A stretch of 57,676 nt of DNA from Syntrophomonadaceae bacterium (GTDB lineage Bacteria > Bacillota > Syntrophomonadia > Syntrophomonadales > Syntrophomonadaceae). Of this stretch, positions 43,699 through 54,214 are shown in pieces (positions within the stretch are counted from its first letter, which is position 1; every line of letters starts with the position of its first letter). The translations under genes were made by a program, and so were the position numbers. The DNA lies in assembly GCA_012522955.1 (NCBI GenBank), contig JAAYJK010000045.1, positions 1 to 57,676 of the forward strand. Direction: 5' to 3'. The notes beneath the pieces are model-generated. The model had not been told where the DNA came from. It did no database searches and saw nothing but the letters and a program-made list of their open reading frames with translations.

Positions 43699-44262
43699 TT
43701 AATACTGTTCCCAGCTTTCATCCAAATCATCAAACCATTTGAATAAGTGGCATTGGGCGCAGTATACCTCTGACGTATCGTGCATGTTGTGACAAAGATT
43801 ACAATCCTGCTCCCCATGGTGGGAATCATGAGGATTTGAATCCTCAAAATCAGTAGCTGCTTTGATTTCATCCCAACTATGCCCTTCTCCCTCTTGGGAA
43901 TGGCAGTCCAGACACATAGCCCGATCTCCGGGAGGTCCTTCCAAGGGTATGGTATAATTGCCGGTTATAAAGTTTAGTCCTTCCATGGCTTTTTCAGGAA
44001 TGGTCCGATTATGACAATCCAGACACTCGATATCCTCCTGGGCATGTTGGTTATCCAACAAAACCCCAGTATTCCAGGACTCGTAATAGGGCTCGATTAT
44101 GTGACAGAGACCACAAAAGGATGGGTTTTCACTGGCTTTTAACAGTCCTCCGGCCACCACTGCTCCCAGCAACACAGCTACTCCGATTACTATCAGGATT
44201 ACCTTTTTATTCAGATACTTGTCCCGAAAGCTCTTCTCCGCTTTATTACTGGTTTCCATCAT
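43699..44262 (-). CDS. NapC/NirT/NrfH-type multihaem cytochrome c (five CxxCH motifs)
   Basis: Membrane-anchored c-type cytochrome of 187 residues. One N-terminal helix (VILIVIGVAVLLGAVVAGGLL) anchors it outside the membrane. Five haem-binding motifs are seen: CGLCH, CLDCH, CLDCH, CNLCH and CAQCH. NrfH and NapC proteins usually have four and act as quinol dehydrogenases passing electrons to a periplasmic or extracellular partner; the fifth motif is unusual for this length. No partner oxidoreductase or cytochrome maturation gene is in the window. It stands alone on the minus strand. Confidence 0.88.
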   Translation of the reverse strand: MMETSNKAEKSFRDKYLNKKVILIVIGVAVLLGAVVAGGLLKASENPSFCGLCHIIEPYYESWNTGVLLDNQHAQEDIECLDCHNRTIPEKAMEGLNFITGNYTIPLEGPPGDRAMCLDCHSQEGEGHSWDEIKAATDFEDSNPHDSHHGEQDCNLCHNMHDTSEVYCAQCHLFKWFDDLDESWEQY

Positions 44263-44636
44263 ACATCACTCCCATTGTCATTTTAATGCTCAAGATATAG
44301 TGTTCATTTGCGATTTTTCTGGTTTTTTGTCATTTTAAGCCTAACCTTGGTATTATTTTAAACTAAAACTCAAATATTGTCTTTGTATTACCATACAGTA
44401 ATCCAGGTTCCCTTATGTAGATAATACATAAAAAGATCTCCGGCTTATTGTTCTTGAATCTGATACTTACCTGTTTTTCCCCGCTCATTCGACGACTCCA
44501 CTCTGAAACCTATGAAGGAGCCGTTATACACAACATGATAGCAACGCCATGCCAAAGCATCTTCTTCACATATTTCTAAATATTGAAATTTACTGAAATT
44601 AGTAGTATAAAAAAAGAAAAGACTATGGGGGAGATT
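44263..44636. other. Intergenic region upstream of the regulator island
   Basis: A divergent spacer of about 370 bases between the cytochrome gene and the HTH gene. It should contain both promoters; no clear operator, repeat or RNA was recognised. Confidence 0.55.
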
Positions 44637-44825
44637 ATGCTTGATTATATGACTGTGAAGGAAGCGGGAAAAAAATGGGGAATCGGCAGCCGGATGGTAA
44701 CGCTATACTGTGTCGCGGAACGAAATAAGGGAGCAGAGAAAGTCGGTAATCTGTGGCTGCTCCCCAAAAATGCCCAAAAGCCTGAAGACGGCCGATATAA
44801 AAAGGTGATGAAAAATGGGTATTAA
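44637..44825 (+). CDS. Small helix-turn-helix DNA-binding protein
   Basis: A 62-residue protein starting at ATG 44637, five bases after GGGGG. YMTVKEAGKKWGIGSRMVTLYC is a MerR/excisionase-type helix-turn-helix, and GAEKVGNLWLLPKNAQKPED matches the typical second half of clostridial small DNA-binding proteins. Such proteins often sit in mobile or regulatory islands. It overlaps the next gene by 11 bases and so is probably co-expressed with it. Confidence 0.8.
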   Translation: MLDYMTVKEAGKKWGIGSRMVTLYCVAERNKGAEKVGNLWLLPKNAQKPEDGRYKKVMKNGY

Positions 44826-45588
44826 TATGAATGACAGTCAAAACACCATTTCAGATTCATTTCAATCCCTTTTAACCAAAGAAGAACTCCTGGCCAAAGT
44901 GATCGAGTTTTTCCCCTACCCAATTCAGGTTTATGCTCCAGACGGAACATCGGTGCTGGTGAATAGGGCTTTGCTCTCCGAATACCATGCTTTAAGCCTG
45001 GACCTGGTGGTGGGGAAGTATAATGTATTAAAAGATCCTGACGTTATGGCAACCGGCCAGTTCCATGAGTTAAAGCGGGCTTTTCAAGGAGAAAGCGTCT
45101 TTCTCTCCGATATTAAAGTACCCTTGGAAGAAATAGTACATCGATACGGTCTACAGGGCGTTGATGTAGAGGCCGTATATCAGGACATTACGCTTTTCCC
45201 TATTCTGAATGAGGTAAAACAGGTGCTATATGTTGTGGCATTTTTGATCAACAGGAGGGTTTATCGTGGAAAATCGGAGATTGAAAAAGCTAAAGAATAT
45301 ATAGAAACCCACTGGTTGGACAAGTTTGACGCTGACCAAACAGCAAAGGCGGCTTCCCTCAGTAAAGCCCATTTCACTAAACTGTTTAAGCAGCATACGG
45401 GGGTAACTCCCAATGAGTATTATATAAATTATAAAATCAGTAAATTGAAAGAACAACTCTTGGATCCTAATCTTTCCGTCACCCAGGCCTTCTCTGCCTG
45501 CAATATGAATTATAATGGCCATTCCGCCAATTTATTCAGAAAGAAGGTGGGCGTTTGCCCATCTGTATATCGAAAGAGCTTAGAATAA
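44815..45588 (+). CDS. PAS-like/AraC transcriptional regulator, paralogue 1
   Basis: A 257-residue regulator. Residues about 25-150 form a PAS-like sensor (VIEFFPYPIQVYAPDGTSVL), and 165-255 an AraC-type double helix-turn-helix (DQTAKAASLSKAHFTKLFKQ then HTGVTPNEYYINYKISKLKE). It is clearly paralogous to the following gene over its whole length, including nearly identical DNA in the HTH part. The ligand is unknown. Its targets may be the neighbouring membrane cytochrome or the Hdr/Flx operon, but that is only proximity. Confidence 0.85.
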   Translation: MGINMNDSQNTISDSFQSLLTKEELLAKVIEFFPYPIQVYAPDGTSVLVNRALLSEYHALSLDLVVGKYNVLKDPDVMATGQFHELKRAFQGESVFLSDIKVPLEEIVHRYGLQGVDVEAVYQDITLFPILNEVKQVLYVVAFLINRRVYRGKSEIEKAKEYIETHWLDKFDADQTAKAASLSKAHFTKLFKQHTGVTPNEYYINYKISKLKEQLLDPNLSVTQAFSACNMNYNGHSANLFRKKVGVCPSVYRKSLE

Positions 45589-45608
45589 AAGGAAATGAGG
45601 ACGGATCC

Positions 45609-46382
45609 ATGAAAAATCAGCTTGAGGATGCACAAAATAGCCTGGCTAAATCATTCCAGTCCCTTTTTGAAAACCAAGAACTCTTGGCTAAAGTAATCGA
45701 GTTCTTTCCTTATCCAATTCAAGTTTTTTCCCTGGATGGTACAGCAAGGCTTATTAACCAATCGGCTCTGGACATGATAGGAATCAAAAGTACGGAATCC
45801 CATGTGGGTAAATACAATGTTTTTGAGGATCCCATCGTTCGTAAGCTTGGGGCAATGGAAGAGCTCAGGCAGGTATTGACCGGCAAAACTGTATATATTA
45901 CTGACTTCAACGCACCCTATCAGGATATGATCCGATATTTTAATGTAGACAATAGAGATATACATACCATAAACGCAGACATTACCTGTTTCCCATTAAT
46001 AAATTCTGATGGAGTGGTAGAATACTTTGCCGCCGTTTTCATCTTTAAAAAAATATTCCGGGGCAAAAAAGAAATTGGACGGGGCAAACAGTACATAGAG
46101 ACACATTGGCAGGAGCCCTTTGATGCTGACGGAACGGCAAAGGCGGCCTGCCTTAGCAAGGCACATTTCACCAAGTTGTTTAAGCAGCATACGGGGGTAA
46201 CTCCCCATGAGTACTATATAAATTATAAAATCGGTAAACTTAAGGAGAAGCTCCTGGATACCAATCTTTCCATTGCCCAGGCCTTTGCTGCCTGCAACAT
46301 GAATTATAATGGCCATTCTGCCAGCTTATTTAGAAAGAAGGTTGGTCTTTCCCCATCTGAATTTAGAAAAATATCTGATTAA
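45609..46382 (+). CDS. PAS-like/AraC transcriptional regulator, paralogue 2
   Basis: The second of two tandem paralogues, also 257 residues, starting at ATG 45609 eight bases after GAGG. The PAS-like domain opens VIEFFPYPIQVFSLDGTARL and the AraC domain has CLSKAHFTKLFKQHTGVTPH and NYNGHSASLFRKKVGLSPSE. Divergence is greatest in the sensor half, which fits duplication followed by ligand or partner specialisation. The gap to paralogue 1 is 20 bases. Confidence 0.85.
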   Translation: MKNQLEDAQNSLAKSFQSLFENQELLAKVIEFFPYPIQVFSLDGTARLINQSALDMIGIKSTESHVGKYNVFEDPIVRKLGAMEELRQVLTGKTVYITDFNAPYQDMIRYFNVDNRDIHTINADITCFPLINSDGVVEYFAAVFIFKKIFRGKKEIGRGKQYIETHWQEPFDADGTAKAACLSKAHFTKLFKQHTGVTPHEYYINYKIGKLKEKLLDTNLSIAQAFAACNMNYNGHSASLFRKKVGLSPSEFRKISD

Positions 46383-46540
46383 ATTATCGTATAAAGCAAT
46401 AAAACCCTGGAAATATAACCTTTCGCAGGAAAATCAAAATAATATTTTTCATACTAATAATAAGCATATTAGGCCTATCCTTTAAGCCATCTCCTTAATA
46501 AAATATTAAATAAGATCAGCAGTGGGAGAGGAGCCATTTT

Positions 46541-47023
46541 ATGGATAATGATGGGAAGATGCAGCTGCTTGAGGAACTTACAGCAGTACAAAAAATGTTG
46601 GAGGAAAAAATAGAGTCTCAAGGCCAAATGATCAGAAAATATGGAATGCTTATGGCCAATGACGGGTTGGTTTCTCAAATCATCGATTTCTTCCCTTATC
46701 CCATGGCCATATTCACGCGTCAGTTTACGGTGGTCTTGGTGAACCAGGCTTTTGAGACGGAAACCAAAACCGGGTTTAACAATTTGGACAAAGGCGCTGT
46801 CCGCCTTCTTAAAAACGGAAATACTCAACTGGCTGCCTCCGTAATAAGGGTCTTTGCCGGGGAAACCTCTTTATTGGAAAACTTGAAGAACCCTTTTTCC
46901 TTGTTTTCAGGAATTACACCACCAAGTGAATTACAGTCTGACCATTTCCATAAGGCGGTCATTTTTCCTGTTCCGACTGATGATAGTATAATCACTCACG
47001 GCGTAATTGTGTTTATGCCATGA
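46541..47023 (+). CDS. PAS-like sensor protein without DNA-binding domain
   Basis: A 160-residue relative of the two preceding regulators. An N-terminal coiled coil (LLEELTAVQKMLEEKIESQG) leads into the same sensor opening (IIDFFPYPMAIFTRQFTVVL) and the domain ends at FPVPTDDSIITHGVIVFMP, where the paralogues go on into an AraC domain. It has its own ribosome site (GGGAGAGGAG) and no C-terminal remnant follows, so it appears to be a natural single-domain protein. It may dimerise with the AraC paralogues and modulate them. Confidence 0.75.
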   Translation: MDNDGKMQLLEELTAVQKMLEEKIESQGQMIRKYGMLMANDGLVSQIIDFFPYPMAIFTRQFTVVLVNQAFETETKTGFNNLDKGAVRLLKNGNTQLAASVIRVFAGETSLLENLKNPFSLFSGITPPSELQSDHFHKAVIFPVPTDDSIITHGVIVFMP

Positions 47024-47131
47024 GTAGGGCAGGCTAAAACTTCAGGAATCCAGATTTGATTCCCCCGGGAAATATACTTTTCGCACAGGAATCATCCTTG
47101 AGTCTCGGAAGAAAATTCACGCTAACATAAA

Positions 47132-47156
47132 GCAGGCAGCAAAGTGTGCTGCCTGC
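47132..47156 (-). terminator. Terminator of the hdr-flx operon
   Basis: A 9-bp perfect stem GCAGGCAGC / GCTGCCTGC with a seven-base loop. On the minus strand TTTATGTT follows. It lies 80 bases past the flxA stop, and on the plus strand follows the PAS-only gene. Confidence 0.75.
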
Positions 47157-47235
47157 CTAAATCTTTATTGTGTTTCGGTCTATGCCTAGTGCCATGTGGC
47201 AGAAATATTGGTCTTTATTGAATGTTTGGTGTATC

Positions 47236-48075
47236 CTACCACTCCTGGGGCAGCTGTTTCAATTGGGCCAGAGTAAATACCGGGCCATCCAGGCAGATGT
47301 ATTCACTCCCTATATTGCAGCGGCCGCATTTACCTATCCCGCATTTCATACGCATTTCCAGGGTAGTTATAACCTGATCATCAGTGTATCCCATCTTCTC
47401 CAAGGATTGCAATACAAACTTGATCATTATAGGTGGTCCGCAGGTTACCGCAATCAAGCCTTGAGGATTGGGATTAATTTCTTCCACATATGCAGGCACA
47501 AAGCCCACATGGCCATCCCAGCCTTCTTCCGGGTTATCTATGGTAACATAAACTTGAGTATCCTTGATAGCCGGCCATTCATTGAACAATTCTTCCTTGA
47601 AACAAAGGTCGGCATAGCTACGGCTGCCATAGACTATGGTTATCTTGCCGTAGTCCTCCCGGTGCTTAAAGCAGTATTTTATGAAAGAACGCAAGGGGGC
47701 TAAACCAATGCCCCCGGCAATAAAGAGCATATCCTTGCCTTTGCACTCTTCCACCGGAAAGCCGTTGCCATAGGGGCCACGGACCCCCAGCTTCTGTCCC
47801 ACTTCAATGGCATGCAGTTCATCGGTTAAAAGGCCTACCTTTTTGATGGCAAACTGCAGATATTCCTGTTCTTCCTGCCAGGTACAGGAAAACATCCCTT
47901 CTCCCACCGGCAGATAAGAAACCATGGCACACTGTCCGGGGGCTACATTAAAAGGCACTCCCCCTTCGCTTAAACGGCAGTAAAAGCTCTTAACATCAGG
48001 AGTTTCATCCTTTATATCTACCACTTCCACCACAGTCGGCACCAGCGGTTGTTCGCAGCTGCATTTATCAGACAT
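47236..48075 (-). CDS. flxA: FlxA: FAD/NAD(P)H-binding electron-transfer subunit
   Basis: Flavoprotein of the ferredoxin-reductase/PyrK/HydG type, 279 residues. The FAD domain has GQCAMVSYLPVGEGMFS; the nucleotide domain has FIAGGIGLAPLRSFIKY and VTCGPPIMIKFVL; the C-terminus carries a [2Fe-2S] motif CGIGKCGRCNIGSEYIC. In FlxABCD-HdrABC complexes of anaerobic bacteria FlxA takes electrons from NADH. ATG at 48075 is chosen (GGAGG nine bases ahead) and overlaps the flxB stop by eight bases. It is the last gene of the seven-gene operon. Confidence 0.88.
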   Translation of the reverse strand: MSDKCSCEQPLVPTVVEVVDIKDETPDVKSFYCRLSEGGVPFNVAPGQCAMVSYLPVGEGMFSCTWQEEQEYLQFAIKKVGLLTDELHAIEVGQKLGVRGPYGNGFPVEECKGKDMLFIAGGIGLAPLRSFIKYCFKHREDYGKITIVYGSRSYADLCFKEELFNEWPAIKDTQVYVTIDNPEEGWDGHVGFVPAYVEEINPNPQGLIAVTCGPPIMIKFVLQSLEKMGYTDDQVITTLEMRMKCGIGKCGRCNIGSEYICLDGPVFTLAQLKQLPQEW

Positions 48076-49084
48076 CAACACTCGCCTCCTTTACTTCATT
48101 AATTATATTAACGATGTTGATCCCGGTAGGGCAGGCCACAATACATCTTCCACAGCCGGTACACAAGGGATATCCATATCTTTCCGTAAAGAATTCCAGC
48201 TTATGCAGGAAGCGGTTGCGAAATCTCTCCTTGGTAGTGGACCGAGGATTGCCTCCTCCTGCTTCAGTAGTATATTCTGTATACATGCAGGAATCCCAAC
48301 AACGGAAACGATAGCCTTCCTCTCCCCAGGTTTTGACCTGTATATCAAAACAATGACAACTGGGACATACATAAGTGCATATGCCGCAGTTCTGACAGGC
48401 TGAAGATAGACCTTCCCAAATCGGGTGTTCAAACATTCCCTTTAATTTCTCAGCTACCCCGCTGTAATCTACCTGAGTAGGGAAAGCCTTTAGTTCTGGT
48501 GCCTTTAGCTCTTTTTCTTGCAAAAGGCTGGAAATACCCTCGGTCAGTTCTTCGCCTTTAGGGGTTTTAGCCTCCCAGATATAGCCTTGGGCTCCAGTAT
48601 CCCGGATTATTATATCCACCTCGGGCTCTACCGGGTCAACTCCCATGCCCTGGCAGAAACAATTAGGCCCTGGCTCATAACAGGCATTGCCGATCAAGAC
48701 CGTGTTGTCCCGGCGGGCTTTGTAGAAACTGTCTTCATAACCACGAGTTAAAAAAACGTCATCCATACAGCGTATAGCCCTAGCATCGCAGGCTCTAAGA
48801 CCAAATATTATACGAGGGCTGCTGTCTTCAAAGGTTTCCTTAATTTCAGCATTGGGCCCGGACTGAATAATGCTGTACATTTTTTCGTTCTGGGGGAAAC
48901 CTACGTTCTTGGGTGATAAATATACATTTAAGGCATCCAGCATTAGCCGTTCTTTTTCTGGATTTCGGTTTTTCCAGGAGTAGAAGCCGCTGCTGTTTGC
49001 TCTGGATAGGGGTACGAATACTTCTGCCGATTCGGATAGCTTATCCAAAACGCTTTCCAGTTTATCTTTACTTAAAATTTTCAT
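48068..49084 (-). CDS. flxB: FlxB-like 4Fe-4S subunit (HydB/AsrA family)
   Basis: A 338-residue iron-sulfur protein of the sulfhydrogenase-beta/anaerobic-sulfite-reductase-A family. The N-terminal two-thirds include PRIIFGLRACDARAIRCMDD and a cysteine segment CYEPGPNCFCQGMG. Two ferredoxin-type motifs follow: CQNCGICTYVCPSCHC and CTGCGRCIVACPTGIN. It would pass electrons between the flavin subunit FlxA and the Hdr part. The ATG at 49084 has GGAGG eight bases ahead. Letters B and C for the two iron-sulfur subunits are assigned by mirror order and could be swapped. Confidence 0.8.
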   Translation of the reverse strand: MKILSKDKLESVLDKLSESAEVFVPLSRANSSGFYSWKNRNPEKERLMLDALNVYLSPKNVGFPQNEKMYSIIQSGPNAEIKETFEDSSPRIIFGLRACDARAIRCMDDVFLTRGYEDSFYKARRDNTVLIGNACYEPGPNCFCQGMGVDPVEPEVDIIIRDTGAQGYIWEAKTPKGEELTEGISSLLQEKELKAPELKAFPTQVDYSGVAEKLKGMFEHPIWEGLSSACQNCGICTYVCPSCHCFDIQVKTWGEEGYRFRCWDSCMYTEYTTEAGGGNPRSTTKERFRNRFLHKLEFFTERYGYPLCTGCGRCIVACPTGINIVNIINEVKEASVDV

Positions 49085-49100
49085 GCTTCTTCCCTCCTTT

Positions 49101-50009
49101 TTACATAAATCCTTCATCCGGATCATCCAGACGGTATACGCTTAAAGCCGGTTTGGCACCTTCCACAAAATTGATCCCGGCTTGATAGGGTCCGAAAAAT
49201 TCGTTGGCATCTTGGGCCAATTTGGTGTTTATTAACATTAAGGGTATATCTACCGGGCATACCCGTTCGCATTCACCGCATTCCACACAGCGACCGGCCA
49301 TATGATAGGCCCTTACCAAGTGATACATCAGGTTGTCGGTTTCGTTGTTTTCCCGCCCTACCCACTGGGGTCTCATTTCGTCAAATATACAGACCCGACA
49401 GTTACAGGCTACACACGCCTGGCGGCAGGCATAGCAGCGGATGCAGCTCTCAAAGGTGTCCCGGAAGAATTCATAACGATCATCCGGGCTCATATTTTCG
49501 ATTTCCTGAATTTTAGCCTGTCTTTCTCCGCTCATATTGGGCTCTTGTTGACTGCCCAAGAGTTCATCATATATCAGGGGATTGGGATAGGCGCAATTGC
49601 TGCACTTGTCTGCTTTATCATCCTCTGCTATATTCTGCAGTAAACCTGAGTTCCTCTTAATAGCTTTCAATGGGTCTTTCATCCCCGGGCAAGATACCCC
49701 TACTATATACAGGCGGTCCCGGCTAAACTGATTATCTTCCAGGAGTCGAATAACTCCCCGGGAGTCACAGCCTTTTACTACCAGGCCGATTTTCTCCTGG
49801 GAGTCCCGGAATTTGAGCAGGTAATTGGACAGGTTGTGAATGGAGTATTCATCGAATACTATTCTTTCTGCCTCTTCTGCGGTTCGGGCGGCTAAGGGAC
49901 GAGTCAGATAATCCTGATTCCCTTTTTCCCAGGCCAGGAATACGTCAACTTGACCCTTGCTAAGAAGCCGGCTCGCAATTTCTTTTACTTTATTACTTAT
50001 TTCTTTCAT
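49101..50009 (-). CDS. flxC: FlxC-like 4Fe-4S subunit
   Basis: A 302-residue protein with an N-terminal domain (KIGLVVKGCDSRGVIRLLED) related to the F420-hydrogenase beta/HydB group, a possible cluster in KADKCSNCAYPNP, a cysteine-rich stretch CIRCYACRQACVACNCRVC, and a ferredoxin motif CVECGECERVCPVDIP. It starts as ATGA overlapping the flxD stop and so is translationally coupled. It is placed between FlxD and FlxB as in known flx clusters read backwards. The name is by context. Confidence 0.8.
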   Translation of the reverse strand: MKEISNKVKEIASRLLSKGQVDVFLAWEKGNQDYLTRPLAARTAEEAERIVFDEYSIHNLSNYLLKFRDSQEKIGLVVKGCDSRGVIRLLEDNQFSRDRLYIVGVSCPGMKDPLKAIKRNSGLLQNIAEDDKADKCSNCAYPNPLIYDELLGSQQEPNMSGERQAKIQEIENMSPDDRYEFFRDTFESCIRCYACRQACVACNCRVCIFDEMRPQWVGRENNETDNLMYHLVRAYHMAGRCVECGECERVCPVDIPLMLINTKLAQDANEFFGPYQAGINFVEGAKPALSVYRLDDPDEGFM

Positions 50010-50437
50010 CGCGCATCCCTCAGCTTTCTGTTCGGTCCCAGTTTCTTAACGTCTTCTACCACTTTTTTCATGGTTTCCTGGAACTTGGGTCCTTCGGCTC
50101 CGGATATCCAGGCGGTCTGGTATCTTTCCGGTTCCATGCCGATATATTCCATCAGGCTTTTTATCATAATATGACGACGGCGGTTGTAGTAATTGCCACT
50201 ACCATAGTGGCAGTCTCCCGGGTGTCATCCGGACAAAAGTACGCCGTCGGCTCCCCGATTAAATGCTCTTAAGACCAGCATGGGGTCCATGCGTCCTGAG
50301 CAGGGGGTTCTGATTATTCGCACATCGGCGGGATACTCCAGGTGGTTTAGCCCGGCTAAATCTGCTGCTGCATAGCTGCACCAGTTGCAGGCGAATACTA
50401 TTACCTTGGGTTCCCATTTTTCTTTATCTATAGACAC
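50006..50437 (-). CDS. flxD: FlxD/MvhD-family [2Fe-2S] subunit, predicted selenoprotein (TGA = Sec71)
   Basis: MvhD-family protein of 143 residues that links the flavin/NADH module to HdrA. Reading starts at GTG 50437. Conserved cysteines are in FACNWCSYAA and TPCSGRMDP. After GADGVLLSG there is a TGA (50227-50225), followed in the same frame by HPGDCHYGSGNYYNRRR and the family's usual end, EGPKFQETMKKVVEDVKKLG. Family members have cysteine there (CHPGDCHY). A 7-bp hairpin with loop AUGGU follows the TGA. VhuD of Methanococcus, the same family, is a known selenoprotein. The real stop is TGA overlapping the flxC ATG. Treating the gene as broken would need the frame and all motifs after the TGA to be conserved by chance. 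Confidence 0.85.
50194..50212 (-). promoter_or_regulatory. SECIS-like hairpin of flxD
   Basis: On the minus strand TGCCACT-ATGGT-AGTGGCA forms a 7-bp perfect stem with a five-base loop containing GGU. It begins 12 bases after the in-frame TGA, so the loop is about 20-24 bases downstream, as in bacterial selenocysteine insertion elements such as that of E. coli fdhF. Confidence 0.75.
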
Positions 50438-52419
50438 AGTGCATCCACCTCCGATACCAGTTGTTCGTCGGTATAGCCTTTAAGGTTTAGCGCTGCAGTT
50501 CGGCAGGCGGGGATACAAGCTCCACAACCCTGGCACAAACTGCTGTTTACCTCGGCTATGGTCCTAGTAAACGGTCCATGACCATGACCGCCTCGCTCCT
50601 GAATGTCTTTTAAGGATATGGCATTATACGGACAAATAGGTACACACAGACCACATCCAGAACACTTGATGCTATCCACCTCTGAGGTCATGGGTTCGGT
50701 GGCCAGCTCAGTCTTGGAGAACAGTCCACACACCTTAACTGCGGCAGCACTAGCCTGGGCTACGCTGTCCGGGATATCCTTTGGTCCCTGGCAGGCTCCG
50801 GCCAGATATACTCCGGCGGAAAAGGTTTCTACCGGCTGCAGTTTGGGATGGGCTTCCTGGTACCATCCGTCTTTATCTGTGGAAAATCCTATGGTTTTAG
50901 CCAGTTCCAAAGACCCTTGGGATGGCACCATGGCGGTGGCCAGTACTACCAGGTCGGCTTCTACTTCAATGGGCCTCCCTATTAGAGTATCTTCGGACTT
51001 TAGTACCAGCTTGTCCCCCTTAGGATAAATCTTGCTTACCCGCCCCCGGATAAAGGTGGCTCCTTCGTTAAGGGCCCGCTGATAGAATTCTTCATAGTTT
51101 TTGCCTGCAGTACGTACGTCCATGTAGAATACATAGGCTTCGCTGTCTTCAATCTTGGTTTTCACCTGATAAGCATGCTTGGCGGTATACATACAACAGG
51201 CTCTGGAGCAGTAGCTCTTGCCTTTAGTATCATCACGGGAACCTACGCATTTAATAAAGGCTACGCTCTTGGGTTCTTTGCCATCCGAAGGCCTCTTTAT
51301 GTGACCCAGGGTGGGTCCCCCTGCGCTGACCAGTCTTTCAAAATGGAGACCGGAGATAACATCCGGGTATTTACCATAACCATATTCTCCATAGGCTTCT
51401 TCCCACTGGAATAGGTCGTAACCAGTGGCCATAACGATGGCGCCGATTTCGTAATCCACATATTGATCCTGGTCATCAAATTTAATGGCTCCTACCGGGC
51501 ATATTTTTTCACAAACTCCGCACTTGTCTTCGGTCAGCTTGCGGCAGTTATCGGCATCAATATATGGTTTACCGGGTACGGCCTGGGGAAACAGCTTGTG
51601 AATAGCCGGTCTTATTCCCATTCCCAGGTCGAATTCGTCTTTCAGTTTCTTGGTAGGACATTTTTCGGTACACAGTCCGCAGCCGGTACAGGCGTCCCAG
51701 TCAACGTATTTTGCTTTCTTCTTTATCTGGACTTGGAAATTACCAATATATCCAGATATTTTGCTCACTTCTGCATAAGTTACTAGTTCAATGTTAGGAT
51801 GCTGCGCCACAGCAACCATCTTGGGGGTGCCTATTCAGGCGGCGCAGTCCATGGTGGGGAAAGTTTTATCCAGCTGAGTCATTTTGCCTCCGATGGAGGC
51901 TTCCCGCTCTACCAGCACTACCTGGTGCCCGGCCTCGGCTATATCCAAGGCGGACTGCATACCCGCTATTCCTCCCCCTATGACCAGTGCCCGTTTGGTA
52001 ATGGGTATGGTAGAAACCTGCAAGGGCTTGTTTTTTAAGACCTTACTTACTCCCATCCTCACCAGATCTTGGGCTTTTTTGGTAGCTGATTGCAGGTCAT
52101 GGTGTACCCAGGAGATTTGTTCCCGAATATTTACCATTTCAAACATATATCCATTCAGTCCTCCGCTTACTACGGCTTTGCGGAAGGTGTTCTCGTGCAT
52201 GCGCGGCGAACAGGATGCAACTACAATCTGTTCTAATTGGTGCTCTTCTATGGCATTCCTGATCAGTTCCTGGCCGGGATCTGAGCACATATATTTATAG
52301 GTGGTAGCATAGGCTACCCCGGGTAATGTTCTGGCGTATTCTGCCACTTTTTCGGTATCTATGGTGGCTTCTATATTGGTGCCGCACTGGCAAACAAATA
52401 CGCCTGCTCGTTTCTTCAT
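50428..52419 (-). CDS. hdrA: HdrA: FAD/4Fe-4S subunit of heterodisulfide-reductase-like complex, predicted selenoprotein (TGA = Sec195)
   Basis: Flavin-based bifurcating subunit, 663 residues with the TGA read through. The N-terminal domain has VFVCQCGTNIE and VASCSPRMHE; the FAD site is VIGGGIAGMQSALDIA; inserted ferredoxin motifs are CTGCGLCTEKCP and CGVCEKICPVGAI; C-terminal ones are CSGCGLCVPICP and CQGCGACIPAC. At 51837-51835, after TFPTMDCAA, TGA takes the place of the second cysteine of the family phrase DCxxCxLTPKM; IGTPKMVAVAQHPNIELVTY follows in the same frame. HdrA of Methanococcus is a known selenoprotein. A hairpin lies 20 bases after the TGA. Two separate proteins or a frameshift are ruled out by frame continuity. 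Confidence 0.88.
51800..51814 (-). promoter_or_regulatory. SECIS-like hairpin of hdrA
   Basis: On the minus strand TGCTG-TGGCG-CAGCA is a 5-bp perfect stem with a five-base loop that contains GG. It begins 21 bases after the TGA; a two-base outer helix with a bulge extends it. It is less canonical than the flxD element because the loop has GGC instead of GGU. Confidence 0.55.
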
Positions 52420-52449
52420 GGCCTAATCCCTCCTTTTACTACTATTAAC

Positions 52450-53643
52450 CTATTTCTCCCGTTTCTTTATTTCACCAGTTACATAAGCCTCAGCTGCTTT
52501 GCTAGCCTTTTCCTGGTCAATAACCATTAGTTCGGCCAGTTTGTTTATTTTCTTTTCATCGGCGGCGACTATTTCGGCCAGGATCTTGGCCCGTTCTTCA
52601 TCCTGTATCAGCCTGAGGGCCATTTTGTCCGGATTCTTCTGGAATCCTTTGATCATGGCATCTATTTTCTTTTTATTGGCTTCGGCATCCTCGGCAGTAT
52701 CTGCTGCTTTGGCAGCTCCTTTCTTGCCGGCTTTGGCTTGTCTAGCTGCTTCTTCGGCTTCCATCTGGGCTGCCTTGGCGGGCAGGGTATTAAGATAACT
52801 GCTGGCTTCTACGAAGTGCCGGGGTATTCCTATTTCCTCTTGGCTATATCCTCCGGCCAGGGCTACCAGCTCGGTAAGGTAATATACCGGCATATTTAAG
52901 TTTACTCCGTATTGTTTTCCGGCCCCGGCCTGGCGCATGTCCAAATTTAGCATGCATAAGGGACAAGCGGTTACTATACATTCGGCTCCGGCTTCCCGAG
53001 CATTTTGTATTACTTCATAGATCATTTTGGCTCCGATTTCGGGCCGGGAAGTGGCCAGAGCGGCTCCGCAGCACTCGGTTTTATATGCCCAATCTACGGC
53101 TTCGGCTCCAGTAGCTTTTATTATCTGATCCATGCTCTGGGGGTCTTCATTGTCATCAAATCCGGTATATTCTTCGGGTCTGACCAAGAGACAGCCATAA
53201 TAACAGGCTGCTTTCATGGCTTTTAAGGGTTTGCTTACCTTTTCCTTGATCTTATCAACCCCTACATCATTAACCAGCCATTCCAATATTGATACCGTAT
53301 GACTGCTGGCCTGGAACTCCATGTCAATTATTCCTTCGATTTTTGAACGTAAGGCTTGGTCTTCCCGGGCTTTTATTTCTGTGGCCCGATGCCGGCTAAA
53401 ACAGGCTGCGCAGGGGGCCAGTACGGTTTCCAGTTCCATTTGCTCCGCTATGGCCAGGTTCCGGGCCGGCAGAGCCAAAGCTAAAAGCTGGTTGGTATTA
53501 TGAGCTGAGGTGGCTCCACAGCAGTTCCAGTCTTCTAGTTCTTGTAATTTTATCCCCAGCATCTCGGCGGTCTTTTCTGTGGACATTTTGTATTCAATGC
53601 CACTTCCTTCTCCTGAACATCCAGGATAGTATCCTAAAGGCAT
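52450..53643 (-). CDS. hdrB: HdrB-like subunit with a long C-terminal extension
   Basis: Heterodisulfide-reductase catalytic-type subunit. Two CCG domains are seen: YYPGCSGEGSG with DWNCCGATSAHN and APCAACFSRHR, then CYYGCLLVRPEE with TECCGAALATSRPE and CPLCMLNLDMRQ. These bind the two non-cubane [4Fe-4S] clusters. ATG at 53643 is chosen (GGAGG seven bases ahead). The protein has 397 residues where HdrB usually has about 290-300; the last ~110 are Ala/Lys/Glu-rich and predicted helical (QAKAGKKGAAKAADTAED), with no cysteine. This tail may mediate docking. It follows hdrC by one base. Confidence 0.9.
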   Translation of the reverse strand: MPLGYYPGCSGEGSGIEYKMSTEKTAEMLGIKLQELEDWNCCGATSAHNTNQLLALALPARNLAIAEQMELETVLAPCAACFSRHRATEIKAREDQALRSKIEGIIDMEFQASSHTVSILEWLVNDVGVDKIKEKVSKPLKAMKAACYYGCLLVRPEEYTGFDDNEDPQSMDQIIKATGAEAVDWAYKTECCGAALATSRPEIGAKMIYEVIQNAREAGAECIVTACPLCMLNLDMRQAGAGKQYGVNLNMPVYYLTELVALAGGYSQEEIGIPRHFVEASSYLNTLPAKAAQMEAEEAARQAKAGKKGAAKAADTAEDAEANKKKIDAMIKGFQKNPDKMALRLIQDEERAKILAEIVAADEKKINKLAELMVIDQEKASKAAEAYVTGEIKKREK

Positions 53644-53644
53644 A

Positions 53645-54214
53645 TTATTCCCTCCCCATCGTCTCAATTCGCTGGAATATTTTCTTTACCTGATCTTTGC
53701 CTTTGATCCTGTCAGGGAGTATTGATACTTTGCCTCTTTTCATCATGGGCAGACCAAGTTGGGCGTCTTTTAAGGGTTGCATGGTCTTAAGGTTATGCTG
53801 TATTAATAACCCGGCTTCATAGGTACGACCAAAGTTCTTGACCCCATTTAAAAAGGCTTCATTAAATACCGCTACTTTTTTATCGCTTATCTTTCCAGCT
53901 GCTAAGGCTTCTCTTCTGCAGGCGTCCATTAAGGAAGCTATGTCTACTCCCCGGGGACAACGAGCTGAACAGGTTTCACAGGTGGCACATATCCATATGC
54001 TCTGGGCAGCCAATACCTCTTCCACTAAACCCAACTGTAAATATCTGATTATCTGCCGGGGCGGACTGTCCATGGCAAATGCTGCCGGACATCCTGCTGT
54101 ACACTTTCCGCATTGATAACAGAGCTTGATGCTGGTATCTGCCGCTTCTTCAATCCGAGAGATAAATTCTTTATCTGCTGCGCTGGGTGGTGCTAGGTTC
54201 AGGGTTTGCTTCAT
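53645..54214 (-). CDS. hdrC: HdrC-like 4Fe-4S subunit
   Basis: A 189-residue electron-transfer subunit with two ferredoxin motifs, CYQCGKCTAGCPAAF and CATCETCSARCPRGVD, typical of HdrC, which carries electrons from HdrA to HdrB. It is the first gene of the operon hdrC-hdrB-hdrA-flxD-flxC-flxB-flxA. AAGGAGAG lies nine bases before the ATG. A 300-base upstream region contains inverted repeats that may be regulatory. The order is the reverse of the flxABCD-hdrABC order described in sulfate reducers. Confidence 0.92.
   Translation of the reverse strand: MKQTLNLAPPSAADKEFISRIEEAADTSIKLCYQCGKCTAGCPAAFAMDSPPRQIIRYLQLGLVEEVLAAQSIWICATCETCSARCPRGVDIASLMDACRREALAAGKISDKKVAVFNEAFLNGVKNFGRTYEAGLLIQHNLKTMQPLKDAQLGLPMMKRGKVSILPDRIKGKDQVKKIFQRIETMGRE

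What the first reader, a model, noticed from the sequence alone, without database searches (positions are those of the whole stretch)
44637..47023. Regulator island: HTH protein, two tandem PAS-AraC paralogues and a PAS-only derivative
Three consecutive proteins share the sensor opening (FFPYPIQV or FFPYPMAI). Two have nearly identical AraC domains and the third has none but adds a coiled coil. This looks like local duplication with loss or gain of the output domain, giving a possible built-in antagonist. A small excisionase-like HTH gene overlaps the first.
Basis: partly seen in the sequence, partly recalled or inferred. Interest (0 to 1): 0.5.

Follow-up and report, generated by a model that had tools for sequence, protein, structure and literature searches.

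The report
Surface-protein switch with probable feedback sensor
Four neighbouring genes look like a small control circuit, shared by anaerobic bacteria related to Syntrophomonas, in which two sensor-activators switch on giant cell-surface proteins together with a stripped-down copy of their own sensor that probably feeds back on them.

Summary
In detail: a 62-aa HTH gene, two PAS-AraC paralogues (56% identical) and a 160-aa PAS-only gene lie in a row. A recent local duplication does not fit: the three sensors belong to three old, widely shared lineages, and the cassette recurs across clostridial genomes, so the PAS-only gene is neither an error nor a local relic. The small HTH gene looks like a detached N-terminal domain; three relatives carry it fused to PAS-AraC.

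New here: a conserved 78-bp promoter-like element directly upstream of the PAS-only gene (46436-46509). In 87 sources it occurs 59 times; 28 sites precede a PAS-only gene and 22 an exported protein, often an SLH surface protein. The window's own genome has two strong sites: this one, and one on another contig directly upstream of a 2,299-aa SLH protein. The sister species keeps that second site and gene but lacks the PAS-only gene.

Best reading: the PAS-AraC proteins activate this element, switching on a giant surface protein in trans and the PAS-only protein in cis; the latter probably feeds back through PAS-PAS pairing. Binding, activation and the sign of the feedback are inferred. The signal is unknown.

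The parts
44566..44595 (+). degenerate copy of a palindrome (consensus CAGTATATTTC-N8-GAAATATACTG) in front of the cassette, candidate operator of the small HTH protein
   Evidence: 17 of 22 letters in the window, a score that two genes without the HTH (L157, L192) also reach, but at the same distance as the good copies. All 13 of 105 AraC genes scoring 19 or more have an intact or decayed HTH gene.
44637..44825 (+). small HTH gene (62 aa), read as a detached N-terminal domain of the PAS-AraC regulator
   Evidence: HTH_59 26.6 bits, cut-off 27. Fused to PAS-AraC in L068, L069, L075; separate and intact in 10 loci including the window; remnants in 9.
44827..45588 (+). PAS-AraC1, sensor-activator (alternative start 44815)
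   Evidence: HTH_18 59.2 bits, cut-off 33.6. Member of a 47-row AraC1-type group.
45609..46382 (+). PAS-AraC2, sensor-activator
   Evidence: HTH_18 63.2 bits. Model pLDDT 88 with PAS and AraC-type DNA-binding folds. Member of a 46-row AraC2-type group.
46436..46509 (+). conserved promoter-like element (model R1), candidate AraC operator, with TAAAAT box at 46499-46504
   Evidence: One of two strong sites in the own genome: 56.1 bits, E 7.6e-15.
46524..46533 (+). likely ribosome-binding site of the PAS-only gene (GGGAGAGGAG)
   Evidence: Read from the sequence; name from general knowledge.
46541..47023 (+). PAS-only protein (160 aa): long N-terminal helix plus PAS core, no DNA-binding domain
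   Evidence: Model pLDDT 72, pTM 0.62. PAS folds top the PDB search. One side of a 99-supported branch with 32 other PAS-only rows.

Best explanation
This is a regulatory cassette for cell-surface proteins. PAS-AraC1 and PAS-AraC2 are one-component sensor-activators that bind the conserved element at 46436-46509 and start transcription from the TAAAAT box inside it. In this genome the element has two strong copies: in cis it drives the PAS-only gene; in trans, on contig C25, it drives a 2,299-aa secreted protein with S-layer homology (SLH) domains. In many relatives the PAS-only gene and an exported protein follow the element together. The PAS-only protein has the sensor fold without a DNA-binding domain, so once made it can pair with the activators' PAS domains and most likely damps them (negative feedback). 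The small HTH protein is a detached domain of the regulator and may act at the palindrome in front of the cassette. Shown by computation: gene content, homology, conservation, element positions, and co-occurrence of element and regulator. Inferred: that the AraC proteins bind the element, that binding activates, the sign of the PAS-only feedback, and the HTH-palindrome link. The signal is unknown.
For: Element: 24 loci align with 16 invariant columns. In 87 sources the model finds 59 sites at E <= 3.4e-4, in 57 sources: 28 precede a PAS-only gene, 22 an exported protein, 5 a contig end, 3 other genes, 1 none; for the 34 sites in loci that gave nothing to the model the tally is 4, 21, 5, 3, 1. 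Own genome: two sites at E about 1e-15, next best 0.17; the second, not in the model, lies directly upstream of a secreted protein with SLH, fn3 and CBM_X2 domains. Sister species G013: its one strong site (E 1.1e-9) precedes the orthologous 2,393-aa gene, 78% identical over 2,039 aa, on another contig than its regulator. L121: an out-of-model site behind the cassette precedes a 2,545-aa exported protein, 46% identical over 2,098 aa to the C25 protein. Co-occurrence: of 54 family genomes, 9 hold a regulator at least 50% identical to P0002; 8 of these have a strong site, and in the ninth (G036) the contig ends 34 nt after the gene (L119); 0 of the other 45 have one. Gene order: the first downstream gene is same-strand and exported in 47 of 73 loci, the first upstream gene in 11 of 71. 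Sites occur without an HTH gene, without a PAS-only gene, and with AraC1 or AraC2 alone, so the AraC genes are the part that nearly all sites share. AraC1 and AraC2 are fused in one frame in L116 and L142, a hint that they work as a pair.
Against: No binding or expression data. A direct repeat, expected of many AraC sites, was tested and is not significant (p 0.65). The general promoter scan reports no sigma-70-like site over the element, and over the region no more sites than in shuffles. The sister species lacks the PAS-only gene, so the switch can do without it. In the window no terminator was found between AraC2 and PAS-only (found in 19 of 29 such regions), so read-through is possible. 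30 of 87 sources show no site; some end too soon, but loci such as L129, L133, L137 and L145 have an A1- or A2-type gene with DNA downstream and no site. The distant PAS-AraC relatives (for example L068, L069, L070, L072, L075, L190) have cassettes but no R1 site. Loci are not independent (L172, L174 and L177 are near-copies), and 'exported' is a crude hydrophobicity rule.
Confidence: 0.62

Rival explanations
1. The PAS-only protein is a co-activator or signal-delivering partner (positive feedback or heteromeric sensor), not an antagonist; the rest of the circuit is as above.
For: Its gene heads the activated unit and is under purifying selection. Position alone does not set the sign. Many cassettes keep it between activator and exported protein.
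Against: Many loci with the element have no PAS-only gene (22 sites precede an exported protein directly), and the sister species keeps regulator and trans site without it, so it is not needed for activation.
Confidence: 0.25
2. The PAS-only protein acts elsewhere, for instance at the cell envelope or on the exported protein, and shares only the promoter with the surface protein.
For: In the own genome its target-gene partner is unlinked, and its sensor has moved far from the AraC sensors (28 of 98 identical).
Against: It shares the PAS ancestry of the activators and stays beside them, also where the exported gene differs. No signal peptide is visible in its sequence.
Confidence: 0.1
3. The element is bound by another factor (the small HTH protein, or a regulator outside the cassette) and the AraC proteins act elsewhere.
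For: No direct repeat was found in the element.
Against: The element occurs in many loci without any HTH gene, and strong sites occur in 8 of 9 family genomes with a close AraC relative and 0 of 45 without.
Confidence: 0.08
4. Decaying remnant: the cassette was carried into this spot and no longer does anything.
For: The HTH gene is broken and the PAS-only gene missing in the sister species. In 9 of 12 relatives checked the flanking oxidoreductase is followed within about 2 kb by the aminotransferase, with neither cytochrome nor cassette between.
Against: Four intact frames, and the trans site is kept in front of orthologous genes in both species although unlinked.
Confidence: 0.05

Closest known systems
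AraC/XylS family one-component activators
   Same: C-terminal AraC-type DNA-binding domain above the Pfam cut-off in both proteins; candidate site next to a -10-like box.
   Different: Sensor is a PAS domain instead of the usual cupin-like arm (recalled); no direct repeat demonstrable in the site; two paralogues plus a PAS-only partner.
ANR family (AraC negative regulators; Aar and AggR), PMC4038620
   Same: Works like: a protein without AraC domain whose gene depends on the AraC-type activator and feeds back on it (abstract and outline seen).
   Different: ANR proteins are under 10 kDa by that abstract; P0003 has 160 residues and a PAS fold. No common descent is claimed.
VIVID and White Collar complex of Neurospora, PMC4039372
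   Same: Works like: a small photoreceptor that sequesters the activator complex and gives adaptation (abstract and outline seen); that VIVID is a lone LOV/PAS domain induced by the complex is recalled.
   Different: Fungal, light-sensing, unrelated DNA-binding domain; no light link here.
NifL and NifA
   Same: PAS-bearing protein that controls an activator; the NifL PAS domain is the top fold match of P0003 (2gj3, E 2.3e-5); a NifL-NifA complex is solved (title only, 9qq6).
   Different: NifL is larger and NifA is not an AraC protein (recalled).
ExsA and ExsD
   Same: AraC-type activator of an exported system with an anti-activator (listing of PMC7303211 only).
   Different: ExsD is not a PAS protein (recalled) and the system is type III secretion.

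Membership tests
AraC/XylS regulators | C-terminal AraC-type double HTH domain | tested here: met
   HTH_18 59.2 and 63.2 bits against a cut-off of 33.6; model matches 3oio and the AraC domain 2k9s.
AraC/XylS regulators | direct-repeat binding site near the -35 region | tested here: not met
   No significant repeat in the element (p 0.65). This is usual rather than strictly defining.
AraC/XylS regulators | activates transcription | not testable with these tools
   Needs a reporter assay.
PAS domain (sensor of all three proteins) | sequence above a Pfam PAS cut-off | tested here: not met
   PAS_9 14.6 of 27 bits for P0002, PAS_8 13.4 of 21.8 for P0003, none listed for P0001.
PAS domain (sensor of all three proteins) | PAS fold | tested here: met
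   PAS and LOV domains lead the PDB matches of both models; P0001 was not modelled.
ANR family | small protein under 10 kDa | tested here: not met
   P0003 has 160 residues.
ANR family | gene controlled by the cognate AraC activator | tested here: inconclusive
   Element directly upstream, binding not shown.
ANR family | binds and inhibits the AraC activator | not testable with these tools
   Needs two-hybrid and reporter tests.
Excisionase (TIGR01764) for the small HTH gene | score above the family cut-off | tested here: not met
   14.6 against 28.8 bits.
SLH surface proteins (target on C25) | SLH domains and exported N-terminus | tested here: met
   Three SLH stretches, 102.8 bits; hydrophobic leader read from the sequence.

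The most novel reading that the evidence does not exclude
A bacterial counterpart of VIVID: a stand-alone PAS protein, made from the operon that its activators switch on, pairs with their PAS domains and resets them, giving pulse-like or adapting expression of giant S-layer-anchored surface proteins in syntrophic clostridia. The cassette moves between genomes and can control its surface protein at a distance through one conserved element.
Probability: 0.35. Interest if true: 0.7.

Novelty: new variant of a known kind. Interest (0 to 1): 0.58.

Why it matters
It replaces an isolated curiosity by a testable circuit: candidate regulators, a 78-bp element and two predicted target genes in a 2.5-Mb genome that has no other AraC-type regulator. 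How syntrophic and digester clostridia choose their surface proteins is, as far as I know, little studied, and this gives an entry. A PAS-only feedback partner of AraC activators would add a simple design for sensory adaptation in bacteria. One relative with HTH, AraC1, PAS-only, element and SLH gene is a named culture-collection strain record (Syntrophomonas wolfei subsp. methylbutyratica JCM 14075, L177).

Tried and rejected
Recent local duplication: rejected by the tree, which is a quick tree on few columns.

PAS-only gene as a truncation or sequencing error: rejected; 33 distinct PAS-only rows, dN/dS 0.22-0.43 in 9 of 10 pairs, the tenth with dS 0.

21-bp direct repeat in the element, seen by eye: tested and dropped (p 0.65).

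Element as a structured RNA: no Rfam match at E <= 1 in window 44200-47300; folding z-scores of five copies from -1.24 to 1.24.

The SLH relative on C1 of the own genome (56% to the L067 protein) as target: no strong site there, so not claimed.

Regulation of the flanking oxidoreductase operon: considered because it is next door, but it lies on the other strand and no strong site precedes it.

Literature: searches listed nothing that describes this cassette (1 of 1, 1 of 1, 15 of 142 and 8 of 41 papers listed); the library lacks most subscription papers, so this is no proof of absence.

Full report
What is there. Window 44637-47023 holds an HTH gene of 62 aa, two PAS-AraC genes (253 and 257 aa) and a PAS-only gene of 160 aa, all on the + strand (the translation was out of frame and was repeated). 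AraC1 and AraC2 are 56% identical over 250 aa; the AraC halves are 77 of 98 and the sensor halves 61 of 150 identical. PAS-only matches AraC1 at 28 of 98. In this genome (2.53 Mb, 137 contigs) no other PF12833 match reaches E 0.001, and no further PAS-only relative reaches E 1.

Folds. The PAS-only model (31 sequences, pLDDT 72, pTM 0.62) has a helix at 3-37 and a mixed core; the first PDB matches are PAS domains, led by NifL (2gj3, E 2.3e-5). The AraC2 model (45 sequences, pLDDT 88) matches VqmA, an AraC-type domain of 3oio, and AraC itself. By sequence the sensors stay below Pfam's PAS cut-offs.

Relatives. Of 54 family genomes 15 have a match to P0002 at E <= 1e-15 and 15 a match to P0003 at E <= 0.01, many of the latter to the AraC sensors. 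The genome-contig scan gave 127 relatives, of which the best 80 were kept as 78 loci. Most titles are Clostridia-type MAGs; a few odd labels (Parabacteroides, Synergistaceae, Micrarchaeota) may be binning errors, the last being nearly identical to the S. wolfei subsp. methylbutyratica locus at the PAS-only gene (161 or so of 162, 99%). The window arrangement HTH, AraC1, AraC2, PAS-only recurs in L122, there followed by a lipoprotein-like gene and an SLH protein. I found 38 PAS-only hits, 33 after removing places fetched twice. Both AraC types stand together in 18 loci, AraC1 first in 14; they are fused in L116 and L142, and two distant units are fused in L070.

History. A quick IQ-TREE of 136 PAS domains puts 33 PAS-only rows on one side of a branch (99) and AraC1-type and AraC2-type rows in separate multi-taxon groups. 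Five AraC rows without the motif were left out before the tree, and the tree warns of few columns. The paralogues are therefore older than this genus. PAS-only dN/dS is 0.22-0.43 in 9 of 10 pairs; the AraC1 sensor gives 0.11-0.19 in 4 pairs.

The small HTH gene. L068, L069 and L075 carry the same domain fused to the front of PAS-AraC. Across 105 AraC genes checked, 22 have the domain: 3 fused, 10 separate and intact (window included), 9 as remnants or broken. In the 10 intact cases the stop overlaps the AraC1 frame in the same way, with ATG in 9 and GTG in L178. In front of the gene stands a palindrome; the 13 genes scoring 19 or more of 22 all have an intact or decayed HTH gene, while the window's copy scores only 17, which L157 also reaches and L192 exceeds (18) without an HTH gene. 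Link and function are inference.

What lies downstream. In 85 loci the first downstream gene of at least 120 aa is same-strand and exported in 47 of 73, against 11 of 71 for the first upstream gene (Fisher p 1.5e-9) and 28 of 226 exported among far genes; an SLH protein is among the first three downstream in 23 of 73 and upstream in 9 of 71. Loci are related, so the p-value is too small. Pfam confirms SLH in the 10 large downstream proteins scanned. The window and its sister are exceptions: an oxidoreductase operon on the other strand follows.

The element. The gap between the AraC stop and the PAS-only start (median 200 nt, n = 30) holds a conserved element. 24 copies align with 16 invariant columns. 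The sequence-only model R1 finds 59 sites at E <= 3.4e-4 in 57 of 87 sources; two weaker hits were dropped. Of the 59, 28 precede PAS-only, 22 an exported protein, 5 a contig end, 3 other and 1 none; of the three 'other', L163 is a PAS-only gene cut by the contig end, L166 runs off the contig, and L128 encodes a zinc-ribbon protein. 'Exported' here allows any start within 70 residues and is lenient.

The own genome. R1 finds C130:46436-46509 (E 7.6e-15, window) and C25:25741-25816 (E 1.4e-15); the third is at 0.17. The C25 site ends about 10-20 nt before the GTG starts of a 2,299-aa protein (L207:1334-8233, minus strand) with SLH, fn3, CBM_X2, Big_2 and CarboxypepD_reg matches. In the sister G013 the single strong site precedes the orthologous gene on another contig than its regulator. 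G014 and G015, without a regulator match, and G016, with a distant one, show only weak sites (E 0.003-0.04). In L121 the site and a related 2,545-aa exported protein stand directly behind the cassette, so the linked state exists elsewhere.

Co-occurrence. In 63 genomes of the class, 8 have a site at E <= 5e-4 (stricter filters there lose weak matches). All 8 are among the 9 family genomes with a regulator of at least 50% identity. Five of the nine sites found are not in the model's training set by locus or position: G049, G050, G013, C25, and none of these was used; that makes four new sites plus five trained ones.

The insertion. In 9 of 12 relatives examined (of 42 with the oxidoreductase) the aminotransferase follows the oxidoreductase within about 2 kb with no cytochrome match between; in the other 3 it was not seen in the stretch. 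The cassette and cytochrome thus probably entered this spot in the ancestor of window genome and sister.

Mechanism. Steps shown: parts, conservation, positions, co-occurrence. Inferred: AraC proteins bind and activate the element; PAS-only pairs with them. Negative feedback is my choice because the switch persists without PAS-only in the sister and in the directly controlled loci, and because known lone partners such as Aar (PMC4038620, abstract and outline) and VIVID (PMC4039372, abstract and outline) act so.

Correction of wording in this report: the count of new sites in the co-occurrence test is four (G049, G050, G013, C25) of nine.

Noticed in passing
window 50428-52419, minus strand: An HdrA-like gene is split by one in-frame TGA (DCAA-U-IGTPKM when read as selenocysteine); the sister shows the same split. 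Probably a selenoprotein; SECIS and Sec genes were not looked for.
   Followed up: partly
window 47236-54214, minus strand: Operon of NAD-binding oxidoreductase, Fer4, HdrA-like and CCG-domain proteins, probably an Hdr-Flox type electron-transfer complex (name recalled), conserved in 42 of 54 family genomes by its first gene.
   Followed up: partly
window 43699-44262, minus strand: Multihaem cytochrome (Cytochrom_c3_2 and NapC/NirT matches) that seems to have come into this spot with the cassette.
   Followed up: partly
L086 10165-12686, minus strand (own genome C1): SLH protein with DUF6591- and DUF4870-like neighbours resembling genes behind cassettes in relatives, but without an R1 site.
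   Followed up: partly
L060 8219-9805 and L142 7104-8783: AraC1 and AraC2 fused into one open frame of 528 and 559 aa; whether these are real fusion proteins is untested.
   Followed up: partly
L184 11112-11186: An R1 site far behind the regulator, downstream of a 2,334-aa SLH gene, with no gene read after it before the contig ends.
   Followed up: no
L077 6045-6329, minus strand: Lone PAS fragment of 94 aa in the G035 genome, far from any AraC gene found there.
   Followed up: no
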